Assembly: GCA_963576785.1 (NCBI GenBank)
Contig: OY756141.1
Span: forward strand, 3,224,001-3,288,000
Reading direction: 5' to 3'
Source: Chlorophyllum brunneum
Taxonomy: Eukaryota; Basidiomycota; Agaricomycetes; Agaricales; Agaricaceae
Length of the DNA: 64,000 nucleotides
In this document: positions 2,265-26,272 of the stretch, in pieces
Layout: every line of letters starts with the position of its first letter
Position numbering within the stretch: position 1 is the first letter of the stretch
Position numbers and translations under genes: made by a program
The notes under the pieces: generated by a model
Database searches by the model: none
What the model saw: the letters and a program-made list of their open reading frames with translations, nothing else
Told to the model about the DNA's origin: nothing

Positions 2265-3227
2265 CTATTGATACATCCACACCACCAGGAGGTTATATGA
2301 CAACTCTTTATGCAAAAGATCTTCCTTCACAATGTCCAATAGTAATTTGGTTTCTTCATCAGACTCTCGTGGGATAACTAGTTTCTCAATTATGATATTG
2401 GCTTGAGGAATGGGGAGGTGGATTAGCAGAGGGGCATGGTCCAAACTGAGACAATCCCCAGCCTGGATACTGTGGATAGGGATGTGAGGGAGGGTGGTGG
2501 AGACAAACAGTAGATCTATCACTGTATCAGGGAGGGCAGGATCTGTTGCATAACATGTAGGCCTGGCCACATCGGGGTGGGAATGTTCCATGTTGAGCAC
2601 ATCCACAATAAGCAGCAATCAGTCTGCACTTGCTGGGTGTGAATCAGTCGAAGGGTCCTAATTACATGATCTGATGTTGAAGTCTCCCCCCATAACAAGG
2701 AAGGGGGGTAGGTTGAATAAACACTCTTTAAGATGATGGATAGCTGAGTTTCTGCTGTTGTTGTAGACATTTAGCACTAAAATTTCCTTGCCTTTGATAA
2801 ACAGGGAAATACACATAAGGTCTCTGTGCTTGACAACATCTTTTCTAAGGGAGGGTTGGAGCTTCAGTAACCATTTGTGTGTGAAAGCCATAACTTGCAG
2901 TAGAGCCTGGAGGTCAACTAAAACTGCCTTTCTAAACCCATTGGGCCAAGGTTGAAGTCCAGGATGCTGAGGGAACTGTCAAGCATGGTGTCCATCTGAG
3001 ATTGTGAGTACATCACTTGGATTGAATGGATAGCAAATGGGGGTCCAGTCTGGATGAATCAGGCCACCAATGAGAGAGTTACTGTCAGGGAAAGTTGACG
3101 ATGGAATATCACAGATATAGTACCATGGGGGTTCTTGAATGAGAAGGAGGTTGACATCACCTCTATGAGCAAGGACTGTCTCCATCACTCCATACAATTT
3201 ACCTACATTATGAGAGCAGACCTTCAA
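2265..3227 (-). pseudogene. LINE-0 ORF2 N-terminal fragment (APE-type endonuclease)
   Basis: Three frame-shifted pieces (3227-2979, 2891-2658, 2618-2265) give the apurinic-like endonuclease that nicks target DNA for target-primed reverse transcription. Visible motifs are CSHNVGKLYGV at the start, LLLIQEPPW, then GGDFNIRS, and LDHAPLLI in place of the usual SDHAPL. The last residues before 2265 no longer match the other copies, so LINE homology probably ends near 2280-2300. It is a non-functional relic with no RT attached. Confidence 0.82.
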
Positions 3228-3717
3228 CTCCTTCAGTAAGGAAGGAGGTGAGCAATCTGTCTTCAGTGTTAGGTGTGATATTTATGATGAACTAGACTGT
3301 TGGCTTCATCCAGCTAGGGAAGAGGAGGGGGAAATGTCCTGGTTGGCCCAAAGTTCAAGGGCTTTGTTAGCATACCAATTATGATCAAAGTATTTCCTCC
3401 AGAAGGAGCACTTGTTGCAATCAGATGCAAGGTAGTCTTTGCCACAGTTGATACATATGGGCTTGTGAGGGCAGGGTTTGCCTGCCAGGGTGGCTATGAT
3501 AGGCAGGGTAGCTTTTTCATTGCCTTTGCAACAAACAGCAAAAGAGTGGTGATTGACAGTAGCATGTGGACCTTTGCAGTCTGTACACATGTTAAGGCAA
3601 GATCTGCATTTGAGAACAGAATGGTCCCATCAACACCATTTAGTGCAGAATGGAACACTGGGAGTGGTATTGGCTCTCATGATATGGTATATGCCTCTGT
3701 AAATAATGAGGGACTTG
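2280..3717 (-). mobile_element. LINE-0: old truncated LINE copy (Gag zinc knuckles to endonuclease)
   Basis: Translated minus-strand fragments align with LINE-1, LINE-2 and LINE-4 in this window from the end of ORF1 to the end of the endonuclease. The 3' part (RT, RNase H, poly-A) is absent, so the left edge is not a normal LINE terminus and implies a deletion or rearrangement against the SUV3 relic. The right edge is cut by the 5' LTR of Gypsy-1. The exact left boundary is uncertain by some tens of bases. It is among the most decayed LINE copies here, in keeping with its place at the bottom of the nest. Confidence 0.85.
3306..3717 (-). pseudogene. LINE-0 ORF1 C-terminal fragment (zinc knuckles)
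   Basis: The fragment corresponds to the nucleic-acid-binding C-terminus of the LINE Gag-like protein. The clear stretch (3590-3306) begins CTDCKGPHATVNHH and continues to a second cluster, CINCGKDYLASDCNKC, matching the knuckles of LINE-4 ORF1. Upstream (3590-3717) the first knuckle is recognisable but broken, with a stop where LINE-4 has arginine after the second cysteine pair. The normal ORF1 would extend a further 580 codons or so, but the Gypsy-1 LTR begins at 3718. No function is expected. Confidence 0.8.
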
Positions 3718-3721
3718 TGTT

Positions 3722-4357
3722 ATGTCTAAACCTTGAACCTATGTCAGAGGTTACAACAAGTTTCCAGAAGCAATACCACTCATCCCACCACCACGATCCA
3801 ATGACACTGTTATCGATTCTCTACTTTGACTAGCCTGGAAATATGTACCATACTTACATGTATGCAATACTAATGGACTCTACTTATGCACCATCGAGAA
3901 CAACCTCTATGGTGCCTGGAATAATGGTTGGAAAGCACGACTGACTACTGAAGGAACTATGCAGTACATCCACCCTTACATGTATACTCATGGTCCAGTG
4001 CTTGAAGTACTCATTCACCAACAAATTGCCAATGGAATCTATTGTATAGAAATGCAACCTAGAGACTTATCACCAGACGATGAACCCGCTGTACCCAGTA
4101 GTGACAGTGATGATTCTCCCCATCCACTGTTGCAATCTACTCGAGCCTTTGTCGAGTCACCCAAGTCTTATCTCTCTGAAGAACCAATCGCATCTATGTT
4201 ATTCCTATCATCCAACTCCAATCATCCTATGGATGCAGTTCTTCCATTACTACCATCATTGTCATTGCCTTCTACTACTTTGTCCTGCATGTCTTGTGAC
4301 TGCAGCTGTTCTGATGAATCTCCATCATTGTCATCTGAGATCTCTGAGGATGAGTAA
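3722..4357 (+). pseudogene. U3-encoded reading frame of Gypsy-1, 5' LTR copy (211 codons plus stop)
   Basis: The frame begins at LTR base 5 with ATG and ends at TAA 4355-4357, upstream of the TATA box, so it lies wholly in U3. Only two stops interrupt it: TGA 3734-3736 and TGA 3827-3829. At the first of these the 3' LTR still has CGA. Conversely the 3' LTR has TGA at 11133 where this copy has CGA. The predicted product has an N-terminal half rich in Tyr and Trp (motifs AWKY, NGWKAR, MQYIHPY) and an acidic, Ser-rich C-terminal half ending with a cysteine cluster and SEISEDE. I do not recognise the family. In the 3' LTR the frame is continuous with pol (see 10779-11335). Confidence 0.7.
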
Positions 4358-4544
4358 GCACTCATCCATTTCACCATCATCAGTTTCACTTTGCTCTATG
4401 TTTAGCTGTTTCATCTTTATCAGTTTCATGTTTATCTTTAGTAGTGTTTCACCTTGAGTTTCATATCTATCAGTTTCATATTGTGAAATGTGTTTCAGTC
4501 TCATTATCTATACTTCGTAGTATTCATAGAAAAGAAGTAGTTAG

Positions 4545-4552
4545 TATAAATA
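4545..4552 (+). promoter_or_regulatory. TATA box of the Gypsy-1 LTR
   Basis: TATAAATA occurs in the 5' LTR, with the same sequence in the 3' LTR copy near 26029. It lies 35 bases upstream of the segment complementary to the primer site, which fits a transcript starting at about 4580. The promoter assignment is inferred from sequence only. Confidence 0.7.
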
Positions 4553-4579
4553 GCCGACTGTATTAGGAAGTCAAAGCTT

Positions 4580-4591
4580 AAGCTTTGATCT
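4580..4591 (+). promoter_or_regulatory. Presumed RNA 5' end of Gypsy-1 (self-primer segment)
   Basis: AAGCTTTGATCT here is the exact reverse complement of 4856-4867 just inside the 5' LTR. In Tf1-type elements the first bases of the transcript fold back on the primer site and are cleaved to prime minus-strand DNA. The spacing from the TATA box supports the same use here. Confidence 0.65.
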
Positions 4592-4855
4592 TCTACAAGG
4601 ATAGCCTTCTTGATTGCCCAAGAAGAGTTTCCATTGATAATTGCTGTCAATCAATAGAAGATTGCTTAACTGCTTATTTTCTACTTGCCCTCATTACTCA
4701 GAGCTACAAGATAAATGGGATTCCCATTTCTTGGTTGAGTAATGACAGTTTGATAACATTTGCTTATCTGGTTACTTAGCTGAGATAGGTATTAAGGCCA
4801 TACCCTAGAGATTGTATCCTCTTTGATTGCCCATAGTAGCTGAATCTGTAACAAT

Positions 4856-4867
4856 AGATCAAAGCTT
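4856..4867 (+). promoter_or_regulatory. Self-primer binding site of Gypsy-1
   Basis: AGATCAAAGCTT begins two bases after the LTR end and pairs over 12 bases with 4580-4591. I see no match to a tRNA 3' end. This is the layout of self-primed Tf1/sushi chromoviruses. Confidence 0.65.
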
Positions 4868-7440: not shown

Positions 7441-10400
7441 GTCTAAAGAGACTAGCTACTGCATCTAGATCTCAAACTACAAAGAAACCACAGATTTCTT
7501 ATTCAACGCCACAATACAATGACTACCTCCAACCCAACCCACCTCACAAACCCAACACTGAACAAATCACCACCATTAACATTGTTCCAAAGAACAATAC
7601 TATCTATGTTCCAACTATTGTTCACTTACCTACCACAACTACCAAACACCTTGCCCTTCTAGATTCAGGAGCAGCCGGAAATTATATTGACCCATCTCTT
7701 GTAGAATGATGGAACTTACCAACCCGTCCACTTGATACACCAGTTACCATCCTTAATGCCAATGAAACCACCAATAGACAAGGACAAGCCACCCATGATG
7801 CTGTCCTTAGACTCACCATAGATGGACAACAAATAATTCTAAAACCAAGAATCATTGGACTAGGAATGCCATGCCTAATCTTAGGAATACCCTGGCTATC
7901 GCAATTCAACCCAGAAGTCGATTGGTCAAGGAAAACTATGAAATAGAGAATCCCATTTATCAACAACCCCCAGCTCAACTGCCTTGTTACCTCAATGGAT
8001 GATAGTACAAATGAAGCTGAACAAGTGAACCACATCTACCTTGAACCTGCCACATTTGAAGAAATAAACTTCAAAGCCAATGTCTCCCAGTTTATTGTCC
8101 AGCAATATGGAGAGAAAAGAGAGACTGACCCTTTGAAAATTGTACCAGCTGATTTTCATGACTACCTTGATATATTCAGTGAACAAGCTGCTTCATGATA
8201 CCTACCCACTTGACCATGGGATCACAAGATCGAGATGAAAGAATCTTTCGAACCAAAAGCTGGACCCGCCTATTAACTATCACCTCAAGAGACCAATGAA
8301 CTCAATAAATTCATTGAAGAAAACTTAGCCAAAGGTTATATTTGATGATCAAAATCACCTATGACCTCACCTTTCTTCTTCATAGGGAAGAAAGATGGAA
8401 AACTCTGCCCATGTCAAGACTATTGATACCTCAATAGTCATACTATCAAGAATGCATACCCGATCCCACTCATCTCATCATTACTTGACAAACTCAAAGG
8501 ATCAAATTGGTTCACCAAACTTGATGTATGTGCCAGATACAACAATATCCACATCCAAAAAGATGATGAATGGAAAGCCACATTCAGAACACCAAAGGGC
8601 CTATATGAGCCAACTGTGATGTTCTTTGGGATATGCAACTCCCCAGCCACTTTCCAGTCCATGATGGACCACATATTCCACCCCTTAATTGATAAAGGAG
8701 GAGTCCTTGTATACATGGATGATATTCTCATACATGCCAAAATGCAAGAAGAACTCCGATGCCTTACCTGTGAAGTATTGAAACTACTTCATGAACACAA
8801 CCTATTTCTCAAGCCTGAGAAATGTGAATTCAAGAAACAATGCCTTGAGTACCTTGGTGCTGTAATCTCCCCATCATCCATTGAAATGGATGCAGCCAAA
8901 CTCGAAGGAATCAAGAATTGGCTAGTACCCAAAATGACCTGCAATGTGTGAAAATTTATTGGATTCTGCAACTTCTACAGAAGATTCATCAAGAATTATG
9001 CATGACATGCCACACCGCTAAACTCCCTCATGTCCAAGAATGTTAAATTCCATTGGACCAATGAGTACCAAGCCACCTTCAAAGATCTGAAGAAACACTT
9101 CATGGAGAAGCCTATTTTGATTGTGCCAGATCCTGATAAACCCTTTGAAATTGAAACTGATGCCTCCATATATGCCTTAGGAGCTGTCCTCACCCAATGC
9201 AATGATAATGGAGTAAAGCACCCAATTGCCTTTATCTCCAGAGCATTCAACTTGACAGAACAAAACTACCACTGCTCAGAGCAAGAATGGCTAGCTATCA
9301 TATGAGTCTTAAAAGAATGGTGCCACCATTTGGAAGGAGCCAAACATGAATTCATTGAATGGAGCAATTACGAGAGCTTATCCCAATTCAAGGAACCCCA
9401 AACCCTTAATCAATGCCAAGCCCATTGGGCAGCCTATATGGAATACTTCAAACCTCAGCTAAAGGTTAAGCATATACCTGGCTAAAAGAACAGCCCAGCC
9501 AATGCATTATCACAATGGCCTGACCACACTCCTGATGACAAAGACAACCAGGAAGTGACTGTATTTGATGGTACTATAGTACATCTCCTCACCAAGGCTA
9601 AGCTTGACAAAGTATGTCAACATCGTGATATGGTCAACCCTGATCTTGATGAGACACCTGATAGTGATCTCCCACACAATGCTGACCGAGTCATCATTCC
9701 AAATAACCCTGGATTGAAGTACCGGATCACTGAACACACCTACGATGCCTTACCAAACCTCCACCCAGGAGTAGCAGCTACCCTATCCAAGATATTGGAT
9801 TACGCCTATTGGCCAGAAATCAAGGACTATGTCCACGAGTATGTTGCTGGATGTCCAAAGTGCCAGCAATTCAAGATTAACCATCACCCAATGAAACCAC
9901 TACTATAACCTATTCCTGCACCCAAGTCGACCTGTCCATTTTCCCAGATATCAATGGACCTTATCACTGATCTCCCCCCATCCTGAGGATATGATTGTAT
10001 TTTATCCATAGTGGACCATGGATTATTGAAGGGGATAATTCTAGTGCCAACTACCAAAAACACCAATGCACAATAGATTGCACAACTATTGGTTGACCAC
10101 CTCTTTGTCAAATATGGCATACCTGACAAAATCATCTCCAACCAAGATCTGCAATTTACCACCAAAGCAATGCAAGAATTCTATAAACTACTTAACATCG
10201 ACCCTGCCTATTCAATAGCCTATCACCCACAAACCAATGGATTAACTGAACAGATCAATCAGGAAATCGAGCTATATTTAGCACTTGCCACTTCAGCTCA
10301 ACCAAATGATTGGGCAAAGTTCCTCTCACTCTACAAATTTGCTTATAACAACCACCCCCATGCTGGACAAAAGGAGTTACCTTTCCAGCTACTCTATGGC

Positions 10401-11056
10401 TATACACCAAAAGCATTTCCCACTACTCTGGAACCAACAAACATCCCTGCCACTGAGGATTATCTCAAGAAACTATCTGATGCTTGACATTGAGCCCTCA
10501 AAGCACACAACTATGCCCATGAAATCATGGCCAAATGAACTGTGAATTATAGGTTACCAAACTTTAATAAAGGGGATAAGGTTTGGTTAGAAAACAAATA
10601 TCTACCAATAAACTTTGCAAATAGGAAAATTACCCAAAGAAGGGAAGAACCTTTCACAATTGTCAAGAAGATCTCACCCATTGTGTTTCAACTAAAATTA
10701 CCTGAAACATGGAAGATCTATAACAAGTTTCATGCCTCTCTTCTTACCCCTGCAATCGAAAACACGATCCATGGATGACACACGTCTCAACCCCTCCCTC
10801 TCCTTGTTGATGATCAAGAAGAATATGAAGTTGAGGCCATTCTTCACCATAAAAGGGTAAAACCTCAACCTTACCACCCTACCAGGATGAAAGCCATTAC
10901 AAGAATCCCTTCTCAGACATTGGAAGCAGCCAATCACATTAGATACTGACCTGTCGAACTATATAGAGTAGAAGAACTCCCTGAGGACAGTCCTTACTAC
11001 CAACCACCGAAGATTGAATGTAACAAAATGGAATTTGTTACTAACAAAGGGAATAA
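7441..11056 (+). pseudogene. pol: Gypsy-1 pol (protease, RT, RNase H, integrase), decayed
   Basis: One frame can be followed through the region, interrupted by stops. Protease has LLDSGAAGNY (Asp codon 7662-7664). RT shows FFGICNSPATFQSM and the catalytic YMDD at 8712-8723. RNase H follows (FEIETDASIYALGAVL near 9150, then HPIAFISRAFN). Integrase has a zinc-binding segment ending CPKCQQF (about 9855), a core with ISNQDLQF, and the conserved YHPQTNGLTEQINQE (about 10220). Downstream is a tail resembling the start of a chromodomain (EEYEVEAILHHKR) but lacking the usual VKWKGY part. Most stops are TGA, including 10485-10487, 10776-10778 and 10947-10949. The frame has no terminator before the LTR and runs on into U3. 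Confidence 0.87.
11044..11056 (+). promoter_or_regulatory. Polypurine tract of Gypsy-1
   Basis: ACAAAGGGAATAA lies immediately before the 3' LTR start at 11057. This is where plus-strand DNA synthesis would be primed. Confidence 0.7.
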
Positions 11057-11335
11057 TGTTATGTCCAAACCTCGAACCTATGTCAGAGGTTACAACAAGT
11101 TTCCAGAAGCAATACCACTCATCCCACCACCATGATCCAATGATACCATTATCGATTCTCTACTTTGACTAGCCTGGAAATATGCACCATACTTATATGT
11201 ATGCAATACTGATGGACTCTACTTATGCACCATCAAGAACAACCTCTACAGCACCTGGAATAACGGTTGGAAAGCACGACCGACTACTGAAGAAACTATG
11301 CAGTACATCCACCCCTACATATACACTTGTGGTCC
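11057..11335 (+). repeat. Gypsy-1 3' LTR, block 1 (U3 start)
   Basis: It matches 3718-3997 of the 5' LTR. It ends with TACACTTGTGGTCC (11322-11335), which is repeated at 18151-18164 as the target duplication of LINE-1. Confidence 0.9.
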
Positions 11336-11774
11336 TTTTTTTTTTTTTTTTTTATCAACCATTTATATAGCGGTACTCGATTGCAGTCTGCACATACATA
11401 CATACAGAGGCAGAACGTACAGAATGTTCGGAGCAAGGAAAGCTAACCCCACAAGACTTAACGCCATCTAGCGTGTATACTATAGAGATGTTTAATACCT
11501 AAGTTGAACAGCGGGAAAAGGAAAAAAGGAATTCGGAGAGAGAGAGAGTGAAAGAGAGAAAATGATAGAGAAAAACTATCGACTCACAAACACAAGGGAG
11601 AACAACAAATGGTACTAGCATGTGGAGGGGCATTTTGCCCAGACACCACGGGAATGATGGATATTGAATGAAAACTATATAAAATAGTAGACGAGCAAGG
11701 AGGGGGTAGAAAGAGAAATGGAATTGAAAGCCATAACCGGGAGAACATAAGAAAAATGAAAAGAGGAAAAGGAC
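11336..11774 (-). other. LINE-1 3' UTR and poly-A
   Basis: The sequence next to the poly-A (ATCAAC, ATTTATATAGCGG, then a CATACATACA run) is shared with LINE-2 (26753 onward) and LINE-3 (52280 onward). A GA-rich microsatellite near 11540 is also shared. The conserved terminal 80 or so bases may be what the element's own RT recognises; that is inference. Confidence 0.75.
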
Positions 11775-14700
11775 TCACACAGGTGCAGACCCGAACCTCT
11801 GATGGACTTGACGACGATGTAATGGGGGTATTAAACCAGCATGGATACAAGGGCAATCAGGTTCAGGTGGGAAACTGAATGCAGCAGGGTTGCAATGCAG
11901 GAAGTTAACAAACTTCTTGATGGTGTTGACACCAAAGTGATGATTGAAGGTGTTACAATGATGGAGGATATGTGACCTAGTCTGGACTATTTGATTGTCA
12001 CAGTGGTGGCAAGATAAATCCTCATTGGGGAAGAACCAAAGTCGGTATTCACCAATCGGAGCGTGGCATAAGATGGTGCAACAAGCTTGTGCGAAGAGCT
12101 GTGGCTGGTATCTGCATTCTCGTATCCAGGGACCGGACTTGATGTGCGATGGTAGAGTGGAGGCCCTGTTTGCTCGCACTGGGAGGTGGAGGAAAAGCTA
12201 CCGCTATATTTCTTGAACCCGAACATGGCTTGCCATGTGTGAATGGTGCATTTGGCGGACTTCTTGCATAGGTAGGTGATTGTGTTGGGGACTCAGTGAT
12301 TTCTACCCCAGTTGGGCCAGGTGACCGTTTGGATCCAGTCATGTGTGGCTTTTTGGATACTGTCTTGTACTTCAACAGAGTGTGATAAAATGTGAGGCAG
12401 TGTTGGTCGGACTTGTTGAACCAAGCCAGGAGCACCTTCGAAGTGAGGATGGACTGCTGCTGACAGGAGTGCGGCGAGCAGTCAAGTAGGAGCTGGGAGG
12501 CTGCAAGGGAGTTGGTGAACACATGAATGTGCTCAACCTGATTGTAGTCATTGGTGGTGAGTACTTTGGTGATTTCTAAGTACTGCGCGACCAGTTCGGT
12601 GTCAGTTGACATCATTCCTCTGAGCCTCTTCATGATAGAGCTCCCTCCATCTAAGTGTTGAATAGTGGCTGCCGCCGTGAACTGGCTAGCAAGTAGGTTG
12701 GGGTTGGGGTGGACCAAGCCATCCGTGCCAATGATGATGGATTTGAAGTCCATCATCACATTCATCGTTACATCATCCCAAAGTATCTTCAAGAGGTGGG
12801 GGTCATCCCGGTTGAATCCTATAAAAGATACATTAGTAGGGAAATGGTCAAGTAACCTACATCCATGCCAGATAGATTTAGAAACAGAATTGAAATGTTC
12901 TATATAACAAGTCTCGAGGGTGGGGTGTGAAACATCCATCACAGCTCCAAGTGTCTTCTTCTTCTGAATCTCCGTGAAATTCTTGATGTGAAGTCGGTGG
13001 GGGGAAGAATGATACTCCTTTGTCAATCTTGCCAGTGCGTGTTCATTGTCCAACATGTGAAGCCTCGACGTTTGTCATTTGGCCAGCTTTCGGGGATGGA
13101 GTTTGATGGGCATGAGCCCCATGAGGGATTCAATGCCGCCAGTGGGAGATGTGCAGAAGACCCCAGTGATCCAGAGGGCTGCACATTGCTGTATCTTGTT
13201 GAGGATTTTTCAAGTCCCTTTTGTTTGTGACTTGTCATGAAACTATAGTCGGTATCCGTATGTTGCTACCAGTATGACACATGAATGGTACAGTAGTCTT
13301 TTGTTGCTAGGGGACAAACCACATATGGAGTTTCCTAGCATTTTCATTGCCTTGATCAAAGATATTGCCTTAGCGGAGTAGTAGCATATGTGTTCCTTGA
13401 AGGTTAACGTCTGGTCAAAGTAGAAGCCGAGATACCACCAGTGGGTTTTTGGCTTGAGAGGGGTACAACCAGTGAATGGTGGGGATCCCAAATTGATAGA
13501 GGGATTGGAGTCCTGCCTCACACATGTAAAGTGAAAGACTTTGGACTTACTGTGTTCAATCACTAGGCCAAATTCATTCATGAGCCACTCCATTTTGTGG
13601 TACATGTGTTGGAGTATTTCGACATTCCGTTTGAGGGATGGGAATTGTGTGACAAGGGTGCTGTCATCCACAAAAGATAGGATGTCAAAGTCCCAATTGT
13701 CACGGTGTTCCTCCATACAGATGTTGAAGATTTGAAGGAGGGGGACAAGGTAAAGGGCAGAGAAAATAGGGCTGAGGGCTGAGCCTTGGCCTACTCCAAC
13801 TGCCACATCGTATTCCAGGGAGTTTTCGTTGTTCCACTGGTAGGTAGTGTGGCATTCTTTGAGATAGTTGTTGAAGAACCCCGCGATTTGAGGAGGAAAT
13901 CCCTGCCGATTGAGTATGTTGGTAAGGAGGTCATGATTGAGGGAGGGGAAGAATTGGGCTACATTGAATGCAAGCACCGATGTTTTCTTTTTCCTCGTCC
14001 ATGCTCCCTGAATAATGTGGGTTAGGAAAAGCCCTGTGTCCTCAGTGGATCATTGTCAGATGGCTTCCAGTTGGTGAGGGTGGAGAACCTTGAATTTCAC
14101 TGCCTCAAATTGGAGTCACTTGGCTAGCATTTTCTCTATTAGCTTGCCAAGCATATTGAGTAAGACAATTGGCCTGAATACCTTTGGAGTGAAGTAGTCG
14201 GGTTTGTTGGGTTTGGGGATAATTACTGACGTTGACCTTTTGAAGTGTGAGGGCCAGTGTCCAAGGGTTAGGCACATGCAGCTGATTCTGAGGAAAAGAT
14301 TGGTGCAGGTGTTGATGGCGGCAATTTGTTTGAGGTGGGACCAGAAGATGTGGTCAGGACTGGGGGCAGAAGAATTTGAGGTATCCTTGAGCAATTCTCT
14401 CATCTCCAATAGAGAGAAGTCGACCCAAGTTCTATTCTCCATGCTGATTGGTGGTGGTAGTTCTTCTAGGACAGCTGCATTGACAGGTCTGTCCTGAGCT
14501 GAATTGTAATGATGGTTGAGGGCTGTCCATAGGTTGTCCATGGTGAGGCAAGGCCAACTGTTGTGGCGAATGGCTTTGGTAGCTGGGAGAGTGTGTGCTT
14601 TGACCCACGGCATCAGATCCCATGGACATCGGTTATCAACCGAGATTTCTTGGATCTTCCTGTCGAAATATACCCTCTTTGTTTTCTTTGTGGTTTTACA

Positions 14701-15814
14701 AAAGGCGTTCCATTTGTGCTTGTTCTTGCAGTCTGTGCAGTGTGTTGCAAGTGCATTAGAGCATTCTTCGTTCCACCAGGTCTTGGACCTAGTGGTGATC
14801 TTGGTCTTCTTTGCGTTGCAATTCTAGGACCTGTCAAACAAAACTCCCAATTCGGCAACAGCTCTCTCCAGCTCGTCCGTGTCATTCATTGGACAGTTCT
14901 TGTTGCTTATCCCCTCTGTGATATCTGTCAGGAATTTGGTTTCCTCTTCCGATCCTTTAGGAATTGTCAATCTTTCAATGATGATGTCTATCTGCAGAAT
15001 AGGAACTTTGATTAGAAGGGAGGCATGATCTGAGTTGTATTGATCACCTTCCTGGATAGCATAGGTGGGGATGTATGGTAACATTTCCGATACAAACAAC
15101 AGGTCAATGACCATATCTGGTAGGCTGGGGTCTGAGGCATAGCATGTTGGTTTGGCCACAGATGGAGTTGACCTAACTAAATTGAGGGCTTTGGTGATTA
15201 TGAGGAGACGGTCTGCACTCACCAGATGTTGGTCCATTGAAGGGTCCCATCTCTCAGATCGAATATTGATGTCTCCACCCAATAAGGGAAAGGTTGAAGA
15301 GACGCTCCTCAAGGAAGTGGAGTGTAGTATTATGGCTGTCATTGTATATGTTCAGCAACAGCAGTTCCTCTCCTCCTGCACAAAGGGAGATGCACAGGAG
15401 GTCTTGATGTTCTATGATGTCTCTTCTAACAGATGGTTGGAGGCATTTGAGTCTCTTGTGAGTGAAGGCAAGGACCCAGGGTGTGGTATGGTGTTCCATG
15501 TTCACCATCCATTGAGGGTGGCGCCAGTGTCCAACTTGGAGGACTTCTTCAGCGATAATCGGATATGAGAGGAGCATCCAGTCTGGGTGGACTAGGCCTC
15601 CTATGAGGGGGGAGCTATTGTTAGAGATGGGGGAAGGGATATCGTGGAGATATCTCCATGGGGGTTCTTGTATGAGGAGGAGGTCGGCGTCACCTCTATG
15701 TGTGAGAACTGTCTCCATCACTCTATACGATTTTCCAATGTTGTGAGAGCAGACCTTCAACTCACTCAGAAATGAGTGAGGAGGCCTGTCTTGGTTGTCG
15801 GGTGTGTTATTCAT
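11775..15814 (-). pseudogene. LINE-1 ORF2 (endonuclease, RT, RNase H, zinc finger), decayed
   Basis: The expected start is ATG 15814-15812, and the terminal codons end at 11775. Endonuclease pieces are in 15814-14824 (CSHNIGKSYRVM, LLLIQEPPW, NSDHASLLI). RT pieces are in 14613-13243 (PNKPDYFTPKVFRP, FNVAQFFPSLNHD, GVGQGSALSP, FVDDS). RNase H (13056-12049) shows IGTDGLVHPN, TDTELVAQYL and FTNSLAAS, in which the third acidic residue is Asn. The C-terminal CHHC finger is at about 12005. At least four frame breaks are visible. The catalytic FVDD of RT is kept, but the protein cannot be made whole. Confidence 0.9.
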
Positions 15815-18061
15815 TGGGAGGGGGTTAGTCTGGTTTTGACTAGTCTGGGATGATGAGGAGGGGGGCAATGGAACTCCTTTGTTGGCTCTTAGTTTGAGCG
15901 CTTTGTTGGCATGCCAGTTGTGGTCGAATTGCTTCTTCCAAAACTGACATTTTTGGTCAGTGGCAAGGTGGTCCTTGCTGCAGTTGGAGCACGTAGCCTT
16001 ATGGGGGCAAGGCTCTCTGGTGGGGGTGGCCGTGATGGGCAGGTCTGCTTTGTCGTTACCCTTGCAGCAGTAAGCAAAGGTGTGGTGGTTGGCAGTGGAG
16101 TGGGAACCCTTGTAATGAGCGCAGGTGAACAGCCTTGCACAGCAATGGATAAGAGGGTGGCCCCATCTGCAGCATTTGGTGCAGAACAGAACTCCCAGGT
16201 TGGCGTTGGCCCTCCTGATGTGGAAGAGACCTCCATAGATGTTGAGGAATTTGTCCTCGATTTTTGTGACGTTGGACCCCACCTTGGAGTCCCAGATTTC
16301 AAACCACGCCATACAGGTGTCGGAGTGCTTGGAGTTGCATCACACTCTTGGTGGTGACACAAATTGGATTGCGTCCGAGTGGATGGAGCTCCAGACACTA
16401 GAGATGACATCGGCCTCGGTGAGGATCTGACCTCGGGGTGTGATATAGCTGATGTCTGTGACTTTCACAAGCAATTTGGATTTGGGGAGGGACACATCGC
16501 CCATGGTGATTTCTCCAAACTTCTCTTTGAGCCATGCCTTAATGACATCCAGCTCCATAGGGGTCAACACCTCCGAGGTGTGGACCATAAGGCCCAGCTT
16601 ACCCTGCGAGGTAGCAATGACCCTGGTCTTTGACTTCTCGGCTATCAGGCAAGTATTGAGAGAGTCAATGATGGCCCCGAAGTTGGAAATGTTGGGTCCA
16701 GTGAGGAGAGAAATGATGACTTGCTTGTGCAAGGGACTATTCAATGTGGAACAAATAACACCAGCTTTCTTAGCCAGCTTCTTGTTTGCGGGGGAGAAAG
16801 TAGAGAAAGCAGCATCATACATTGCTACTACCTTCTTATATGACAATTCCGGGAATTTGCTCACAAATTCCAAGAGTTTGAGGGGGTCACACCCTGGGGA
16901 GGAAGGGGTGGGAGATTTGTCCTTCTTGGCAGCAGCTACCGTGTAGGAGGGTTTGGCACCTTCTTTTGAGGGGGAAGGTGGAGTGGTGGTGGTGGCCGTC
17001 TTGGCAGGGGTGGTGGCCTGTGCCTGTTTGGCCTTCTGATCCATGGCTGCTGGTTTCTTGGCAACTGCAGGTTTATTAGTGACGGGGGCAGGTTTTTGGC
17101 CCTTACTTTTTCCTTTTTTCCTTGTGACGGTTTTAAATTCCGCCTCGGTGATCATTTGTACATCATCATCGGAGATACCTGGATAAGTGATGTTAATGAC
17201 ACCAGCACTACCCACACCAGTAATACCTCGAACGTCATTATCGGAGATACCCGAGTGAGTGGCATTAGTGACACTGGCGATATCCGGTGTGACAATATGT
17301 TCAATGACATCCATGCGGACATTGTCAGATTTTTGAGAGGGGCCTTGATGGGCTGCGCATTGCAGGGGGGAAACGTCCAGTTGAGGTATTTCCTCAGCAC
17401 AGACAGTAATCTTACCAAAATTTACCCCCATCCAACCATGGAGGTTGTTCTTCTGCTTGTCAACGGCAACCTTGAGCCATCCCGCCTTCATCAAGGTCCC
17501 CATTAATTCTGTGAAGGCCCGCCCAAATGCAAGCCCATCATTGCCACTCATGTTGTACGAGCTGTAGGCCTTAACCCACTCGGAAAGCCTTCCAACCTCT
17601 CTCACAGCATCATTGTGGTATTCCTCCAGGCCACCTTCATGTTCCGCAGTGTCTTTCTCTATCACTTTGACCTTGGACTCCAACTCCTCTTTGACTTGGT
17701 CAGCCCAGTCCTTGTCGTCGCTTTTGCCTGAGTAGTAGTGATCGCCTTCCGGCCTTACTCATTTGGATGATCGGTGGACAGTCTTTTCTACATCGCCATT
17801 GAGAGGGTCCAAGGACTGTAGGGGGGTTGTCAGCTGTCTGCTGAGTACAGATGAGGGAATGGTGTGACTGTAGGCCTGATCAGTAGGGATCACAGGCCTA
17901 GACATGGACAAAGTCCTAGGGAATAGGATGCCAGGAGGGGGCAGAGCTGGGGAGGCCACAAAGATGGAGGGAGCGGGAACATGTGTTGTGGTCCCAAAGA
18001 TGTCCCTATCGCCATCAGGCATAGGCTCTCTCAGAGAGAGGTCAGAACGTAACACAGGCAT
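15811..18061 (-). pseudogene. LINE-1 ORF1 (Gag-like), decayed
   Basis: The start ATG is at 18061-18059 (MPVLRSDLSLREP). A 100-codon frame stops at 17759, and a second frame (17683-16340, 447 codons) covers the central part with NMSGNDGLAFGRAF and KQVIISLLTG. The C-terminal knuckles (CTKCCRWGHPLIHC and following) are in the frame 16312-15254. In this copy a one-base insertion before the ATGA junction places ORF1 and ORF2 in one frame, so a fused 352-codon frame spans the boundary. LINE-2 and LINE-4 keep the normal overlap, so the fusion is a mutation. Confidence 0.88.
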
Positions 18062-18164
18062 GGTGTATATCCTTTGTACTGTAGACTAGTACTGTGTAAT
18101 CGAGTTTTTGCAAATCGATGGTGGTGGTACAAGTCAAAGAAGGGATGTTGTACACTTGTGGTCC

Positions 18165-18616
18165 AGTACTCAAAGCGCTCATTCACCAACAAATCACTGA
18201 TGGAATCTATTGCATAGAAATGCAACCTAGAGACTTATCACCAGACAACGAACCTGCTGTACCCAGTAGTGACAGTGATGATTCTCCCTATCCACTGTTG
18301 CAATCTACTCAAGCCTTTGTCGAGTCACCCAAGTCTTATCTCTCCGAAGAACCAATCGCATTTACATCATCCCTATCATCCAACTCCAATCATCCTATGG
18401 ATGCAGTTCTTCCATCACCACTGTTGTTGTTATCGCCTTCTACCACTTTGTCCTGCATGTCTTGTGACTGCAGCTGTTCTGATGAATCTCCATCATTGTC
18501 ATCTGAGATCTCTGAGGATGAGTAAGCACTCATCCATTTCACTGTCATCAGTTTCACTTTGCTCTATGTTTAGCTGTTTCATCTTTATCAGTTTCACGTT
18601 TATCTTTAGTAGTGTT
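18165..18616 (+). repeat. Gypsy-1 3' LTR, block 2
   Basis: It continues the LTR after the LINE-1 target duplication and matches 3998-4449 of the 5' LTR. It contains the remainder of the U3 reading frame (stop 18523-18525). It ends with GTGTT (18612-18616), the 5-bp duplication of Copia-A1. Confidence 0.9.
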
Positions 18617-19188
18617 TGTTGAGGAAATGACCATAACAAGTTGTTTGCTGGGAGCAGCAGTAAATGCAGTGGGAGCAAATATAAGGTCTACTCACTGAGA
18701 TAATAAGCTTCTATCTGATACCTGTAGAAAGGTAATTTGGATAGACAGATATTATTGATAAAGCAGTCGGTGTCAGAAGTGTAGAGGTCAAAGTTGAGTA
18801 AGTCAAGACTGGTGTTGTACTCAAGAAGATAGGCAATGATGAAGAAGTTGTTTGATTGAACAAGATGCAGAACTAAGTCTGCTACATGGGGTTTATATAC
18901 ATATTGAAGCATAGGCAAGTCATACTACATAAAATACTAGGAATGCATAGAATGTTCCTTAGGACTCCCATTAACTGCGGCGTAGTGCCTGCAGAGTACT
19001 GCGGAACGTAGTATACTAGTCATTGGTACTATGTAGAATAATCTATCAAGTACTTATGACTCTCATCGTATGCAGAGCAACTCATAGGAAGTTACTATGG
19101 ATTGAAGTTACTGGAAAGTAACGGATTAGTCTATTATTAGAATAATGACTTCATAATCTATTTCTAGAATATGTCCGAAACTTCAACA
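18617..19188 (-). repeat. Copia-A1 3' LTR
   Basis: It matches 25356-25927. Next to it (19189 onward, read on the minus strand) lies the purine-rich GCAAGGAGAAG, the plus-strand primer tract. A 76-codon open frame inside (18918-18688) overlaps the TATA region and is not called as a gene. Confidence 0.93.
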
Positions 19189-19223
19189 CTTCTCCTTGCT
19201 CTGTATTAATGTAGAGTTTTTAA

Positions 19224-22200
19224 TTACTCAAACATCAAGCCAAGACAAGATCGGAATAGATTGAATTTAATTTTGCCTAGATTTTTTGTGAGAATATCGG
19301 CAGGGTTTTCAGTGCCTTTCACAGAGAATATTTCAATCTTTCCTTCTTCTACCAAATCATGAATGTAATGGTATTTGACGTCGACATGTTTCAATCATTT
19401 TTCTGTTACTGGATTTTTGGCCCAAAATATTGAACCCTCATTATCACCGAAGAGATAAGGTGCCAATGATTGGATACCAATTTCTTCTAACAAATTGATA
19501 GTCCAAATTAATTGTCGACTGCAATCTGACAAAGCCATATACTTGGCTTCAGTGGAAGATAAAGCAACAGTTTTCTGTTTTCTACTTAACCAAGCAATAG
19601 CTCTGCTAGCTAGTAAACAGAAATATCCAGTTACAGATTTACGACTAATTGGATCACCAGCCCAATCAAAATCAGAAAAAGTATTAAGGCCTTGCATAGA
19701 ACTTCTATTATAGGTAATTCTATATTTGCAAGTAGCATTAAGATACTTTAGCAAATGTAGGCCTGCATTGTAATATGCTTTAGTAGAATTGGTCATATGT
19801 TGTGATAATTTGACAGTGGCAAAAGCTATATTGGGCTGACTGCCTATCATCAGATACATAACTGATCCTACTAACTGTTGGTACCTTTTTATGAAGTCAG
19901 GTGTTGCCTTTTCTGTATTGGATTCGAAGATAAATCCATTTGGTAATGGGATTTCTTCTTTTCCAATTACTTTAAATCAATCAAGAACTTTTCCTAGATA
20001 ATCTATTTGGTCTAGGGAGATTGATTGGTTTATAGGGTTTTGCAAAATTTTCATGCCAAGAAACTCTTTGGTTGGGCCAAGGTCTTGGCATTCCCATTTC
20101 TTCATAAAGAGTGCTCGCTTCTCATATAGAAGTCTAGAGCCTCTGATTCCAATGAACATTGAGTCATCTACATAGACTAGAGCTATAATAAGCTCTTTGG
20201 TTTTAGGGTCGTAATAATAATAGACTCCAGTATCTACTTTGGATTGGACAAATCCTAGGTCAGTCATTGACTTAGTCAATTCCTTCCACTATTGTCGTCC
20301 AGATTGTTTTAGTCCATAAATGGCTCGGGTTAATTTCCAAACCAAATTACCACGACCTGTATTGAAACCTTCTGAAAGTTCCATATAGAGTTCTTCATCC
20401 AGTTTTCTGTAGAGATAAGTAGTTTTAACATCTAAACTGAGCATCTCCCAATCGTTGAGGGCAGTGACTGCAAATATACGTCGTGCTATCTCATAACGGA
20501 CTACTGGTGAAAATAGTTCATCGTAATCAATTCCCTCTATCTGAGAGAATCCTTTTGCTACTAGTCGAGCACGGTATCGACCATCTGATTTGGGTGTAAA
20601 GACCCATCTATTTTTGACAGCTTTTCTTCCAGGCGGAAGTTTAGCTAAGTCATAAACATGTCTTTCTTTGAGTGAATTTAACTCTTCTAAGCACGCTTTC
20701 CACCATTTAGATTTCTCTTCTGGTGGTAGTCGATTTAGATCCTTGAAAGAAATAGGAACTAATGGTGATTTGACTTTTTGAGCGCACAGATAATCAATCA
20801 TCCCTACTCCTCCTTCTCTGTATAAGTCTTCCATTGTAGAAGCTTCATGCTGAGAATGTCTATCGATTATTTCAGGTTTGGAAGCCTCTGATTGAATTTG
20901 TCTAACAAGTCTACTTGTAGAACTTGTTAATTTCGACTTAGGAGGTTGGAACATCTCATAGTCCTGGAGTATTTTGGTCGGATGCTTAGTAGAACCATAG
21001 AAGTTTCCTGGATGTTCAGATACTTTTCTGGTTCTTTGCAGTCTCTGGGGTATTTCAGGAACCGGTATTTTATCCGAGTGACCTCATGATACAGAAGGAC
21101 CAGCATCCCGATCATCTTCGACAGGGGTATAGGGTATGAACGGTTGTACATCCGGATCATCTCTTTGAGAAGGCAGATGGTTTGAACCTTCAGGGTGATT
21201 GGGTGGATCAGCATATGATAATCCATCACTGTCATTGCCTTCTGGTATTTGTGCTTCTCTTGCTGGGAAGAGAATGTTTTGCACAATACTATCCCACTCC
21301 TCCTGAACATCTGTATCAATATTTGGTGCCTTTCCCTTTCCTTTATTCTTTTTAGGTTCAGGGAAAGGAGTTGGAATTCGTCCATGAACAGATCTATAAG
21401 TCCTATCTTCCAGAGAACCTTCAGGAGAAGTTCAGGGTATAGGACTCGGTGATCTATCAATAGGTAAACCAGTAGATGGATCTGGAGCATGGAAGACGAT
21501 TACTTCCGAAGGTGTGCTTCAAGAAGTGGAAGATGATGGTTAGTTCATCCGTCCTTCTCATCTTTTTCCAATATATTTAGGGAAGTATTCTTTGCTGAAT
21601 ACAGCTGTTGGAGATGTATAGATTACATTTCCATTTAGATGCCTCATGAAATGATAATTTTTCCTATCTGATGTCCAACCAAGGAAAATCATGAGTTCTG
21701 ACTTCGCTGTCAGGTTATTATCTCTTATCTCTTTTGGGAGAAAGACATAAGCACCACAGCCAAAGACTCTCTCTTTGGAGATGTCTGGAATCTTCTGATT
21801 CAACACTTCATAAGGTGTTTTCCACATGAGCCATGATACTGGTGTTTTATTATAGATATGTATCGCATGATCTATAGAAAACTCCCACCAACCGTCAGAA
21901 ATACAAGCATGATGCCACATGGCTTCTGCTTTATCCATTAGAGTTTGGTTTAAGCATTCTGCTCAACCATTCTGTTGGTGTATATGTGGTGCACTGGTCT
22001 CATGTATAATCCCTAATGAGTGCAAATGAAATTGCAACTCGTCAGTTGCATACTCTCCTCCTCTATCAGTGCAGAGATATTTTAATTTAGTCTCATATTG
22101 AGTCTGAATTAAGGCAATGAAATTTTTCATTTCTTCTGCTACTTCTGATTTCTTATGGAGGAAGCGAATCCATCCATGAGAGGAAAAGTCGTCCATTATG

Positions 22201-25196
22201 GTCATGACCCATTTAAATTTATAGTAAGAAAGAATCGGAAGTTCAACTAAATCCAAGTGAATTCTTTCAAAAGGATGTTTTGCATGTGTAGGGTTCTCTC
22301 TAAAGGGTTTCTGGTACATCTTTCCCTTGGCACAACCATCACAGACTCGGGAATTTGCACCAGAGTAAACCCAATCGTATTTTTCTCAAAGTGATTGAGG
22401 ATACAATTAGAGGGATGTCCTAATCTTGCATGTACAACTTTGTAGCCAACGATCGGATCTGCAGTTATAGCTGCATATTCCGAATGTACAATTTTGGTAT
22501 TAACAAAATGTAAAGTAGTGTTATGACTTGCTGAAGGATATGCTTGAACTACTACTGATTCATTGGCATCTGTTCTAACAGTTTTGCCATCTTGGCATAA
22601 CTGTCCCACTGACATTAGTCGTTTAGAGGTTTCTTTTAGAAGGAAGACTGGATATATTGATATCTGCATTGGTTGAATGCTGTCAGTCTTTCCGTTATAG
22701 ACTCTATACTTAAGCATAACTGCGCCAAGACCAACTGCATTAAGGTAGGGGCCTTGTGCTCCTACAGTCTTAATTGGGATCGAAACTTCGAGTTCTTCGA
22801 AGTTGGTGAAGTCTTCTGCATAAGGGGTGTAATGATATGATGCCCCTGAGTCTAATAACCAAATGTCACTATATTCTTCTAGTGGCATTATGATTTGATC
22901 ATTGCTTATCGATTGAGATCTTATTTGATCCGGTACTCTTAAAAACTGATCAGGCATGCGTGTGGAGAAACAAAAAAGTTGAGAAGTGTTAAAACACTTC
23001 TCATTTATCCATTCACTCGTAACAACATTATTATGGGATCCTAAAGATCCCGATAGTATAATTACATGCCCAGCCCCCGATGTCCCTTCCCCTTGCCCTT
23101 GCCCTTCTTCTTGCGAAGTTGGCCAGTCGGCATATTGGTGACAGGACTGTGTATCAGGGTTAGTAAGAGTATCTGAGATCGAATTGATCATGTACCCAGC
23201 TCCTCCCTTCTTCTTGAAGTCACTTCCGTAGTCAGTTGACAAAAGTCCAAGAGACACCTCAGATTGAGGTACTGAAGCAAAAGGTTCGGACTTTGGAGAC
23301 TTCAGAAGGGGCCCAGAAGAGGGTCCTGCAGCGTTTGCAGGGTTCCTAGGGTTGCAGATGTTGTAGGCGACATCCTGAGCTGGTGCCATGAGGTTGTCAA
23401 CCTCCTTCTCACTTTCGAGCCACTTGAAGGCCTCATCTACCAATACTGTAAGTGTGGCAGGTCGCCTATAAGTGGTCTTGACTTTCTGAGTAAGGGAATA
23501 TTCCTTACTCTGAAAGTGCTCTGTAGGAGGAGAGGCCCATGGAAGAGGAGGGAACTCCTCGTCATAGGTCTTGACAGCCAGATCTACTATTTTCTCTGGA
23601 GGAGGAAGGTAGAACAGCTGAACCTCTCTGGGTTCAAGCAAGTTGCCCTGGGCAATGGAGTCCATGCTTGGAATCTTTACCACATGGTACATAGCCAAAT
23701 TGATTTTTGTCCCAAATTTGGGGGAAACCAATAAGGTGTATGGCAAACCAATGGGTAAAAGAAAAGAGAAGCAGATGTGAGTTACATTAATATCGGGGTT
23801 ATTATGCTTCAAGAACCATTTACTCACCCTCATATGTCCCTCACAGGTACAGCCTGGAGGGTGACCAGAAGGAACAGAAGGTGCACCGGGAGGTGTCACC
23901 AATCGTTCTTGTTGGGCATGGGGATGAGTGACCTGGTACATCCTTTGATCATAACAATCGAGGGCATGCTTCTTTGCCATTTGCATGGGCAAAGGACCAG
24001 TGATGTGGTCACGCCAGGTGATCACCTGTTGGATCTGCAGTGAGTTTTCGAGCAGGGCGGTGAAACATAAGTTTTGTGCTTCAGCACGCACCTTTTTCTC
24101 GAGCTCAGCACGAGCATTTTCTCGTGCCTGCTGAACCTTCTTGGGGTTAACCCAGTAACAGGTTTAGGTCTCTCACTCACTAGAACATGAGTGGTTGGAG
24201 GAGCAGGAGTGGGAGCGGGTTGAGGCACATCCATGCACCTCATCAGGTCGAAGGGAGTCATCCCCGGACTAGTGAAGTGATGGACTGCTGGTTCCGTGGC
24301 AGTGGCGAAGCCCGCCATGTGGGCCTGTAGTTTACCCTGGCACTTTTTGGGCTTCTTCTTTTTCTGGACGTTAATCCAGATAGGAGTAGAAGGAGAAGGC
24401 TGAGGGGGCTGCCCACTCGGATTGGCAGGGTGGTGAGGTCCTCTCGCAGGCTGGGCCCTGGTGTTGCCTCCAGGGTGGAAGTGGTTCCAGGGTGGTCCAG
24501 GGTGAGTCCTGGGGAAGTTGCCCTGAGGGTGAGCTTGGTAGTTAGCAGTGGCAGCATAGGATGCTTGTTGGTTAGACATAGAGGTCTGGATCCTTCATGT
24601 CTTGACCACTCAGCATTTATAGCTTGCTGAACTACCTCCCAGGTCATATCTACAACATTGCTATTATTTGCTAATGTTGTTTGTGCCACTGCATTCCAAT
24701 TGGGTAGTAATGTGTTCAAAGTGATCATCATGCCAAGAACTTCTGGCAACTTTACCTTAGCTGTTTCTAATTGAGAAGCCATTGTTCTCAATTCAGCTAG
24801 ATCCATTGCTGGATCTTGATTCCCTGAGATGCATTTTTGCAACATTCTCTGGAGGATTGAATATACCACGGCAAGAGAAGGTGTCCCAAAGCGGGTTTTC
24901 AAATCTTCCCAAAGGAATCCAGGAGTGTCATGCCCATGGAGTAATAAGGAATCAGGTAAGGTACCATTAATAACAGCCAATGCCTGACCTCTCAGTTGAT
25001 CTCTCCTTCTGTCCTCCTCTGTTAAGGCAGCAGGATTTGCAGGGGAGAGATTCTGACTTGTCACAGTCCATCCTGATTGGTCGGAACCAGTGACAGATAT
25101 GAGTATCAAGGTATCCTGAAGCCTTCTAGACCAGAATACATAGTTCTTAGGCCCATTGAGCTTAGGCTAACCAGAGACAATATTATTAGTAGACAT
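19224..25196 (-). pseudogene. Copia-A1 Gag-Pol polyprotein, decayed
   Basis: The start is ATG 25196-25194 (MSTNN) by comparison with Copia-A2, with a stop at 19226-19224. Visible parts in order: Gag (25109-24258, shifted to 24579-24022), a proline-rich unassigned linker, protease with WLLDSGASYHY, GAG-pre-integrase with HARLGHPSN, integrase core (22319-21963: MDDFSSHGWIRF, CTDRGGEYATD), RT (20954-19977, ending in VYVDDSMFIG) and RNase H (19859-19395). Frame breaks occur near 24260, 22250, 21950, 21500 and 20285. One stop, after SGRQ, replaces the Trp codon present in Copia-A2 (TGG to TAG) and is not a CpG change. Confidence 0.92.
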
Positions 25197-25343
25197 AATA
25201 TCTTCATCGAGTGTATTTCTTTCTAGAAGAAAATTCTCATATCAGCAATGATCAAATACAAGGATAACTCTGTCAGGTAAAGCCCTATCATCCTATCTTG
25301 GTTAGAGGGGATGATAATGGTTTAACCATCGGTAAGGCTACTG

Positions 25344-25355
25344 GGGCCCATAACC
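25344..25355 (-). promoter_or_regulatory. Primer site of Copia-A1 (half-tRNA iMet type)
   Basis: On the minus strand GGTTATGGGCCC follows the 5' LTR directly. It is complementary to the anticodon-loop region of eukaryotic initiator Met-tRNA (GGGCCCATAACC), the primer used by Drosophila copia. The tRNA sequence is recalled knowledge. Confidence 0.8.
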
Positions 25356-25927
25356 TGTTGAGGAAACAACCATAATGAGTTGTTTGCTGGGGGCAGCAGT
25401 AAACGCAGTGGGAAAGAATGTAAGGTCTACTCACTGAGATAATAAGCTTCTATCTGATACCTGTAGAAAGGTAATTTGGATAGACAGATATTATTGATAA
25501 AGCAGTCGGTGTCAGAAGTGTAGAGGTCAAAGTTGAGTAAGTCGAGGCTGGTGTTGTACTCAAGAAGATAGGCAATGATGAAGAAGTTGTTTGATTGAAC
25601 AAGATGCAGAACTAAGTCTGCTACATGGGGTTTATATACATATTGAAGCATAGGCAAGTCATACTACATAAAATACTAGGAATGCATAGAATGTTCCTTA
25701 TGACTCCCATTAACTGCAGCGTAGTGCCTGCAGAGTACTGTGAAACGTAGTATACTAGTCATTGGTACTATGTAGAATAATCTATCAAGTACTTATGACT
25801 CTCATCGTATGCAGAGCAACTCATAGGAAGTTACTACAGATTGAAGTTACTGGAAAGTAACGGATCAGTCTATTATTAGAATAATAACTTCATAATCTAT
25901 TTCTAGAATATGTCCGAAACTTCAACA
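25356..25927 (-). repeat. Copia-A1 5' LTR
   Basis: It matches 18617-19188. Read on the minus strand it contains TATATAAA near 25635, a probable TATA box. Confidence 0.93.
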
Positions 25928-25932
25928 GTGTT

Positions 25933-26272
25933 TCACCTTGAGTTTCATATCTATCAGTTTCACATTGTGAAATGTGTTTCAGTCTCATTATCTATACTCC
26001 ATAGTATTTATAGAAAAGAAGTAGTTAGTATAAATAGCCAACTGTATTAGGAAGCCAAAGCTTAAGCTTTGATCTTCTACAGGGATAGCCTTTTTGATTG
26101 CCCAAGAAGAGTTTCCATTGACAGTTGCTATCAATCAATAGAAGATTGCTTAACTGCTTATTCTCTACTTGCTCTCATCACTCAGAGCTACAAGATAAAT
26201 GGGATTCCCATTTCTTGGTTGAGTAACAACAGTTTGATAATGTTTGCTTATCTAGTTACTTGGCTGAGATAG
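25933..26272 (+). repeat. Gypsy-1 3' LTR, block 3 (truncated)
   Basis: It continues from the GTGTT duplication and matches about 4450-4787, including TATA box and self-primer segment. Homology to the 5' LTR ends at GATAG, where the LTR of Gypsy-B starts. The last 70 or so bases are not found in the window. Confidence 0.88.

What the first reader, a model, noticed from the sequence alone, without database searches (positions are those of the whole stretch)
11057..18525. Gypsy-1 pol reading frame continues through the polypurine tract into LTR U3
Seen directly: from the chromodomain-like tail (10779) the frame passes the polypurine tract and enters the 3' LTR. After excision of LINE-1 it continues to TAA 18523-18525. 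The 5' LTR has the same frame from ATG 3722 to TAA 4355. The two LTR copies have diverged, yet neither shows a frameshift over 211 codons. The stops are all TGA: 3734 is CGA in the other copy, 11133 is CGA in the other copy, and 3827/11166 is TGA in both. U3 lies upstream of the TATA box, so the coding part is transcribed only as the 3' end of the genomic RNA. An LTR-encoded product is known for MMTV (sag) and partly for lentiviral nef; I know of no Ty3/gypsy example. Inference: the LTR encodes either a pol extension or a third protein of about 23 kDa.
Basis: partly seen in the sequence, partly recalled or inferred. Interest (0 to 1): 0.88.

Follow-up and report, generated by a model that had tools for sequence, protein, structure and literature searches.

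The report
Third retrotransposon gene ending inside LTR
A fungal-type retrotransposon carries a third gene, after its usual two, whose last third lies inside the control repeat that ends the element; in the copy first noticed a deletion had merged its remains with the gene before it.

Summary
The open frame in U3 is real but is not an extension of pol. The window copy lacks 1,376 bases that sister copies keep; the loss fuses a cut-off chromodomain to the tail of another gene, and 1 of 40 scored genome matches (the window itself) spans that junction. In 16 longer copies pol stops right after a chromodomain (16 of 16). Seven bases on, in another frame, a third ORF starts (ATG in 15 of 16). It moves by +1 at a fixed place, passes the polypurine tract and ends in U3 of the 3' LTR: about 691 codons, 212 in the LTR. 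The sampled copies are decayed, mostly by CpG changes. Purifying selection shows in the U3 frame: non-CpG pN/pS is 0.91 for variants seen once, 0.49 in two or more rows, 0.37 in three or more; other frames and the noncoding LTR give 0.62-1.87. No relative of the protein was found in Pfam or a 5.8-billion-protein set, and two structure predictions failed. The element is a chromodomain Ty3/gypsy with Tf1-like self-priming signals. The layout resembles MMTV sag, without shown homology. Function is unknown; an accessory protein in env position is my best guess.

The parts
3718..4853 (+). 5' LTR, 1136 bases, TGTTA...TAACA
   Evidence: Paired ends of the sister element in L078/L099 with 5-base target duplication GCAGG; full-length matches elsewhere
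3719..4357 (+). 5' LTR copy of the last 212 codons and stop of ORF3 (in U3, upstream of the promoter)
   Evidence: Open-frame and selection tests
4545..4550 (+). TATA box
   Evidence: Sequence match
4580..4591 (+). predicted 5' end of RNA, reverse complement of the primer-binding site (Tf1-like self-priming)
   Evidence: 12-base exact complement; start site inferred
4856..4867 (+). primer-binding site AGATCAAAGCTT, 2 bases after the LTR
8427..8948 (+). reverse transcriptase
   Evidence: PF00078, E 2.5e-28
9486..9905 (+). integrase zinc-binding domain
   Evidence: PF17921, E 2.1e-13
10491..10861 (+). end of pol: SH3_Tf2-1 domain and the first part of a chromodomain, cut off at 10861
   Evidence: PF24626 E 8.5e-11; full chromodomain seen in sister copy L079 (PF00385 E 6e-16)
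10861..10862 (.). deletion junction: 1,376 bases missing relative to sister copy L078 (rest of chromodomain, pol stop, ORF3 start, most of ORF3 upstream of the LTR)
10862..11056 (+). remnant of ORF3 upstream of the LTR (65 codons)
   Evidence: Matches L078 8868-9062
11046..11056 (+). polypurine tract, read through in frame by ORF3
   Evidence: Sequence; frame kept in sister copies
11057..11335 (+). 3' LTR, first piece (ORF3 U3 codons)
11336..18150 (-). LINE inserted in the 3' LTR (T-run at the left, target duplication of 14 bases)
18151..18617 (+). 3' LTR, second piece; ORF3 stop codon TAA 18523-18525
25927..26272 (+). 3' LTR, third piece, beyond a further insertion that starts at 18617

Best explanation
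The U3 frame is the 3' end of a separate third gene (ORF3) of a chromodomain Ty3/gypsy retrotransposon with Tf1-like self-priming signals. In longer copies the order is gag, pol (ending after the chromodomain), then ORF3, starting at an ATG 7 bases after the pol stop and in another frame. ORF3 runs 93 codons in frame A, moves by +1 into frame B at ATC AAA AGA TGA C, and continues through the polypurine tract into U3, ending before the TATA box. The product would be about 691 residues, 212 of them LTR-encoded. Shown: gene order, frames, the conserved +1 join, selection in A, B and U3, and the deletion in the window copy. Inferred: translation from genomic RNA by re-initiation after pol (or from a subgenomic RNA), a programmed +1 ribosomal frameshift at the join, and an accessory role for the protein, perhaps membrane-linked because of one strongly hydrophobic stretch, in the env position. 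Because both LTRs are copied from the RNA ends, ORF3 would impose its codons on the 5' LTR too.
For: Pol stop in 16 of 16 copies; ORF3 ATG 7 bases on in 15 of 16, ATA in L085. Non-CpG pN/pS for variants in 2 or more of 16 copies: A 0.28 (0.07-0.78), B 0.44 (0.28-0.71), U3 0.41 (0.25-0.64); other phases 1.13-2.10 over nearly the same stretches. U3 in 51 rows: 0.91 for variants seen once, 0.49 (0.36-0.67) in 2 or more rows, 0.37 in 3 or more, 0.29 in 5 or more; other U3 frames 0.89-1.87; rest of LTR 0.62-1.63, all those intervals including 1. Shared variants more constrained than private ones is what genes of once-active elements give. Frame B kept from 7909 to the U3 stop in 13 of 16 copies. 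Five divergent copies (50-85% identity per matched piece) carry ORF3 protein; 4 of 5 show A then B at the same join. L089 is stop-free across the LTR edge for 318 codons, 72 of them in U3. The deletion junction is spanned only by the window copy, 1 of 40 matches.
Against: No RNA or protein evidence. All 51 sampled U3 rows have at least one stop, so no intact gene was seen. The same test on the last 166 bases of pol gave no clear signal in pol's own frame (0.79 for shared variants, against 0.51 and 1.51 in the other phases; 12 shared variants), so short stretches are noisy. The +1 site is not specially conserved (427 of 2050 windows of 24 bases are as conserved); a programmed shift rests on the fixed join and on selection on both sides. 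Indels are not clearly in multiples of three (U3 3 of 8; ORF3 after the ATG 6 of 12). No homologue outside this genome was found.
Confidence: 0.82

Rival explanations
1. Pol itself is extended through the polypurine tract into U3 (the first reader's first option; Ty3 POL3 is recalled to run a little way into its LTR).
For: In the window the frame from the truncated chromodomain runs on into U3.
Against: Pol has a stop after the chromodomain in 16 of 16 longer copies; pol and ORF3 lie in different phases; the fused junction is spanned by 1 of 40 scored matches, the window itself.
Confidence: 0.03
2. Two separate small genes follow pol: A (93 codons, ending at a stop) and B, started independently; no frameshifting.
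For: A ends at TGA in 14 and TAA in 1 of 16 copies; the join is not unusually conserved; B-phase ATGs exist upstream, inside the A stretch (L078).
Against: The conserved B protein begins at the join, with no ATG there; in L078 the next B-phase ATG is codon 40. Over the A stretch the B phase shows no constraint (2.10 for shared variants).
Confidence: 0.2
3. A and B are joined by splicing of a short intron rather than by a ribosomal shift.
For: Third ORFs of LTR elements are typically expressed from spliced messages (said of such elements in PMC5408684, passage read).
Against: Conserved A and conserved B meet within about 5 bases, leaving no room for an intron; one GT...AG candidate that I saw just before the join has GC instead of GT in several copies.
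Confidence: 0.1
4. The open U3 frame is kept as DNA or RNA signal (promoter, priming), not as protein.
For: U3 must keep cis signals.
Against: The constraint is phase-specific: it shows in one frame and not in the two others or in the noncoding LTR.
Confidence: 0.04

Closest known systems
MMTV sag (superantigen gene in the 3' LTR)
   Same: A gene downstream of pol with coding sequence in the LTR, and an unusually long LTR (MMTV about 1.3 kb, PMC3026287, passages read; here 1,136 bases).
   Different: No homology shown. [quoted passage not shown] here the gene begins about 1.4 kb before the LTR and the genome is fungus-like, not mammalian.
Lentiviral nef (recalled, not looked up)
   Same: Accessory gene after env that runs through the polypurine tract into U3.
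   Different: No homology tested; nef starts close to the LTR, and lentiviruses have an env.
Ty3 POL3 of budding yeast
   Same: Ty3/gypsy element in a fungus; a programmed frameshift expresses POL3 (reference title seen; that it is +1 is recalled). POL3 ending in U3 is recalled, not confirmed by the passages read.
   Different: There it is pol that is joined by the shift; here pol stops and a third gene enters the LTR.
[quoted passage not shown]
   Same: Chromodomain Ty3/gypsy elements of fungi; the legend of figure 3 lists an additional ORF.
   Different: The section does not mention an ORF entering the LTR; it says that the majority have one or two ORFs.
ORF3 of bdelloid rotifer LTR elements (PMC5408684, abstract and passages)
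   Same: Varied third ORFs after pol, only some env-like.
   Different: No LTR overlap is mentioned in the passages seen; several of those proteins have recognised families, this one has none.

Membership tests
Chromodomain Ty3/gypsy (chromovirus) | Order PR-RT-IN | tested here: met
   PF08284 (E 2.7e-5) before PF00078 in one frame of L078, then PF17921; integrase core PF00665 found but below its curated cut-off
Chromodomain Ty3/gypsy (chromovirus) | Chromodomain at the integrase end | tested here: met
   PF00385 E 6e-16 in sister copy L079; truncated in the window copy
Tf1/sushi-type self-priming elements | Primer-binding site complementary to the 5' end of the element's own RNA | tested here: met
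   12-base complement at 4580-4591, 35 bases after the TATA start; the RNA end is inferred, priming not shown
Tf1/sushi-type self-priming elements | RT phylogeny inside the clade | not tested
   Only the SH3_Tf2-1 domain match
LTR-encoded accessory genes (sag/nef kind) | Conserved coding sequence in U3, downstream of pol | tested here: met
LTR-encoded accessory genes (sag/nef kind) | Expression from its own or spliced RNA | not testable with these tools
   No RNA data
Retroviral-type env | Recognisable env homology | tested here: not met
   No Pfam family above its cut-off; weak best matches are DUFs, E 0.049-0.13
Retroviral-type env | Signal peptide and transmembrane segment | tested here: inconclusive
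   One hydrophobic stretch (Kyte-Doolittle 2.3-2.6 over 19 residues) early in B in the three copies examined; no hydrophobic start in A by eye; 3-5 N-x-S/T sites in B
Pol extension (Ty3 POL3 kind) | Pol frame open into U3 | tested here: not met
   Stop after the chromodomain in 16 of 16 copies

The most novel reading that the evidence does not exclude
A fungal self-priming chromovirus has evolved, independently of retroviruses, the sag/nef arrangement: an orphan third gene in env position whose last 31% is stored in the LTR, expressed by re-initiation after pol plus a programmed +1 frameshift inside the gene.
Probability: 0.5. Interest if true: 0.78.

Novelty: new variant of a known kind. Interest (0 to 1): 0.62.

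Why it matters
Coding sequence in an LTR ties a protein to the promoter repeat, so gene and regulatory DNA evolve under one another's constraints and even solo LTRs carry gene fragments. It is established for MMTV. A fungal Ty3/gypsy example with measurable selection would show that the arrangement arises outside vertebrate retroviruses, and at least 150 U3 matches in one genome (capped) allow it to be studied. It also warns that LTRs taken as noncoding can hide genes.

Tried and rejected
Rejected: pol extension. Rejected: chance open frame. Considered and not supported: selection on DNA signal only. Protein searches gave nothing: U3 piece, 80 candidates, 0 at E <= 0.01; ORF3 piece, 6123 candidates, 0 (its first 103 residues lay in the B phase over the A stretch, which weakens it). 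A pol piece as control found 2280 at E <= 1e-10, so the collection does hold this kind of element. Viral contigs: 1 stretch matched a pattern, no relative. PDB by sequence profile: best E 0.051, choline kinase, taken as chance. Two structure predictions failed (mean pLDDT 29.8 and 33.0), so no fold search was made. Ten paper searches were answered (one search found no paper); in the listed titles and abstract starts I saw no Ty3/gypsy gene ending in the LTR. The library holds open-licence papers only, and a term such as 3' LTR cannot be entered. Conservation of the +1 site did not stand out. Error found and corrected: searches counted the window LTR twice (52 rows for 51); one search repeats the U3 tests with 51 rows, among which one copy is still there twice under two locus numbers (L004/L011) and one pair is a near-identical duplication (L033/L040); the results barely changed. 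The rows are distinct LTRs out of the 77 loci L001-L077 whose alignment covers the U3 frame; repeats and shorter ones were dropped. In some searches the 'U3' region of the 16-copy set began 9 bases before the true LTR start; one search uses the right edge.

Full report
What was checked. The window U3 frame has 2 stops; 2000 dinucleotide shuffles average 12.5 and none has 2 or fewer.

The element. The LTR is 1,136 bases (3718-4853), TGTTA...TAACA; the sister element in L078/L099 has a GCAGG target duplication at both ends. A TATA box lies at 4545, and 12 bases starting at 4580 are the reverse complement of the 12 bases that begin 2 bases after the LTR. That is the self-priming layout of Tf1-type elements (named from knowledge; self-priming as such is mentioned in a passage of PMC2864245 seen). 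Pol carries protease, RT, integrase, an SH3_Tf2-1 domain and, in sister copy L079, a chromodomain.

The deletion. Window 3717-10861 matches L078 346-7491 and window 10862-11335 matches L078 8868-9341: 1,376 bases are missing. Searching the own genome with 126 bases across the junction gave 40 matches (40 of 86 candidates scored); only the window spans it, the other 39 cover one side. The pol-to-U3 frame is therefore private to this copy as far as seen, and accidental.

The third gene. I compared 16 copies (L078-L093) out of 86 matches to ORF3 in this genome; they are 16 of the 18 best-scoring rows, rows 2 and 11 not being fetched. Pol has a stop in 16 of 16 (15 TGA, 1 TAA) at L078 7616, just after the chromodomain. 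An ATG in another phase follows at 7626 in 15 of 16 (ATA in L085). Frame A (7626-7904) ends at 7905 with TGA in 14, TAA in 1, CAA in 1. From 7909 the conserved protein continues, moved by one base, in frame B, to the TAA at 9700-9702 inside U3; the LTR starts at 9063. 13 of 16 copies keep frame B the whole way (597 codons in L078; 594 or 596 where bases are lost in threes); 3 of 16 have frame-breaking indels. Five more divergent copies (L094-L098; 50-85% identity per matched piece) carry the same protein. In 4 of 5 the A part ends and the B part starts at the same place, with bases like ATCAAAAGATGACTAT; L094 is broken there. With a slip on AAAA the product would be about 691 codons, 212 of them in U3 (arithmetic from these coordinates).

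Selection. Copies decay mainly by CpG changes, so transitions in CpG, TpG or CpA context were left out. Each variant was sorted inside its carriers' own codons. In U3 (51 rows, 50 places), variants seen once give pN/pS 0.91 (0.61-1.45), those in two or more rows 0.49 (0.36-0.67), three or more 0.37 (0.23-0.56), five or more 0.29 (0.16-0.49). The two other forward frames give 0.89-1.87; the noncoding rest of the LTR 0.62-1.63, all those intervals including 1. The first 115 U3 codons are tighter (0.35 for two or more rows) than the last 96, the Ser-rich acidic tail (0.64). In the 16-copy set, variants in two or more copies give A 0.28, B 0.44, U3 0.41, other phases 1.13-2.10. As a control, the last 166 bases of pol gave no clear signal: 0.79 in pol's own frame, 0.51 and 1.51 in the others, on 12 shared variants. 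Private variants near 1 and shared ones well below 1 is the pattern of a gene that was kept while elements moved and is free to decay in each dead copy.

Decay. All 51 rows have 1 to 7 stops in the U3 frame; 147 of 169 are TGA, and 155 of 169 lie in columns that also hold CGA, or both TGA and CAA. This fits deamination of methylated CpG (inference).

What the protein is. No Pfam match above a cut-off, no PDB relative by sequence, none among 5.8 billion proteins, while a pol piece of the same element finds 2280 relatives there. Structure prediction failed twice. In the three copies examined, B has one strongly hydrophobic stretch near its start, and the last 97 residues hold 29 serines with net charge -14. 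My best guess, an accessory, possibly membrane-linked protein in env position, is weakly held (about 0.35).

Against my reading. No transcript or peptide; no intact copy seen; the +1 site is not specially conserved (427 of 2050 windows as conserved); among U3 indels 3 of 8 are multiples of three, among ORF3 indels after the ATG 6 of 12, no clear excess; the pol control was uninformative.

Known kinds. MMTV encodes Sag in a 1.3 kb LTR (PMC3026287, passages). A survey of fungal chromoviruses lists an additional ORF of unknown function (PMC2864245, section 5), and bdelloid elements have varied ORF3s (PMC5408684, abstract and passages). In the listings of my ten paper searches I saw no Ty3/gypsy third gene ending in U3; this is no proof that none is in print.

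Noticed in passing
window about 2265-3718, - strand: Remains of a second LINE next to the 5' LTR; window 3044-3718 is about 68% identical to 15577-16254 of the LINE in the 3' LTR.
   Followed up: no
window 18617-25926: A further element sits in the 3' LTR; ORFs at 19395-22385 on the - strand read like copia pol by eye, and its start motif recurs reversed at 33396 and 45129.
   Followed up: no
L078 7905-8500, frame A: Frame A beyond its stop shows stops that are mostly CGA-derived, so two overlapping frames may once have been open there; shared variants favour B only.
   Followed up: partly
L099 526-1549: A related LTR lies inverted close to the L078 element.
   Followed up: no
L039 (C8:1745488-1747562) and L034: Start of U3 is repeated in front of the 3' LTR in L039; a short U3 piece also precedes the LTR in L034.
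   Followed up: no
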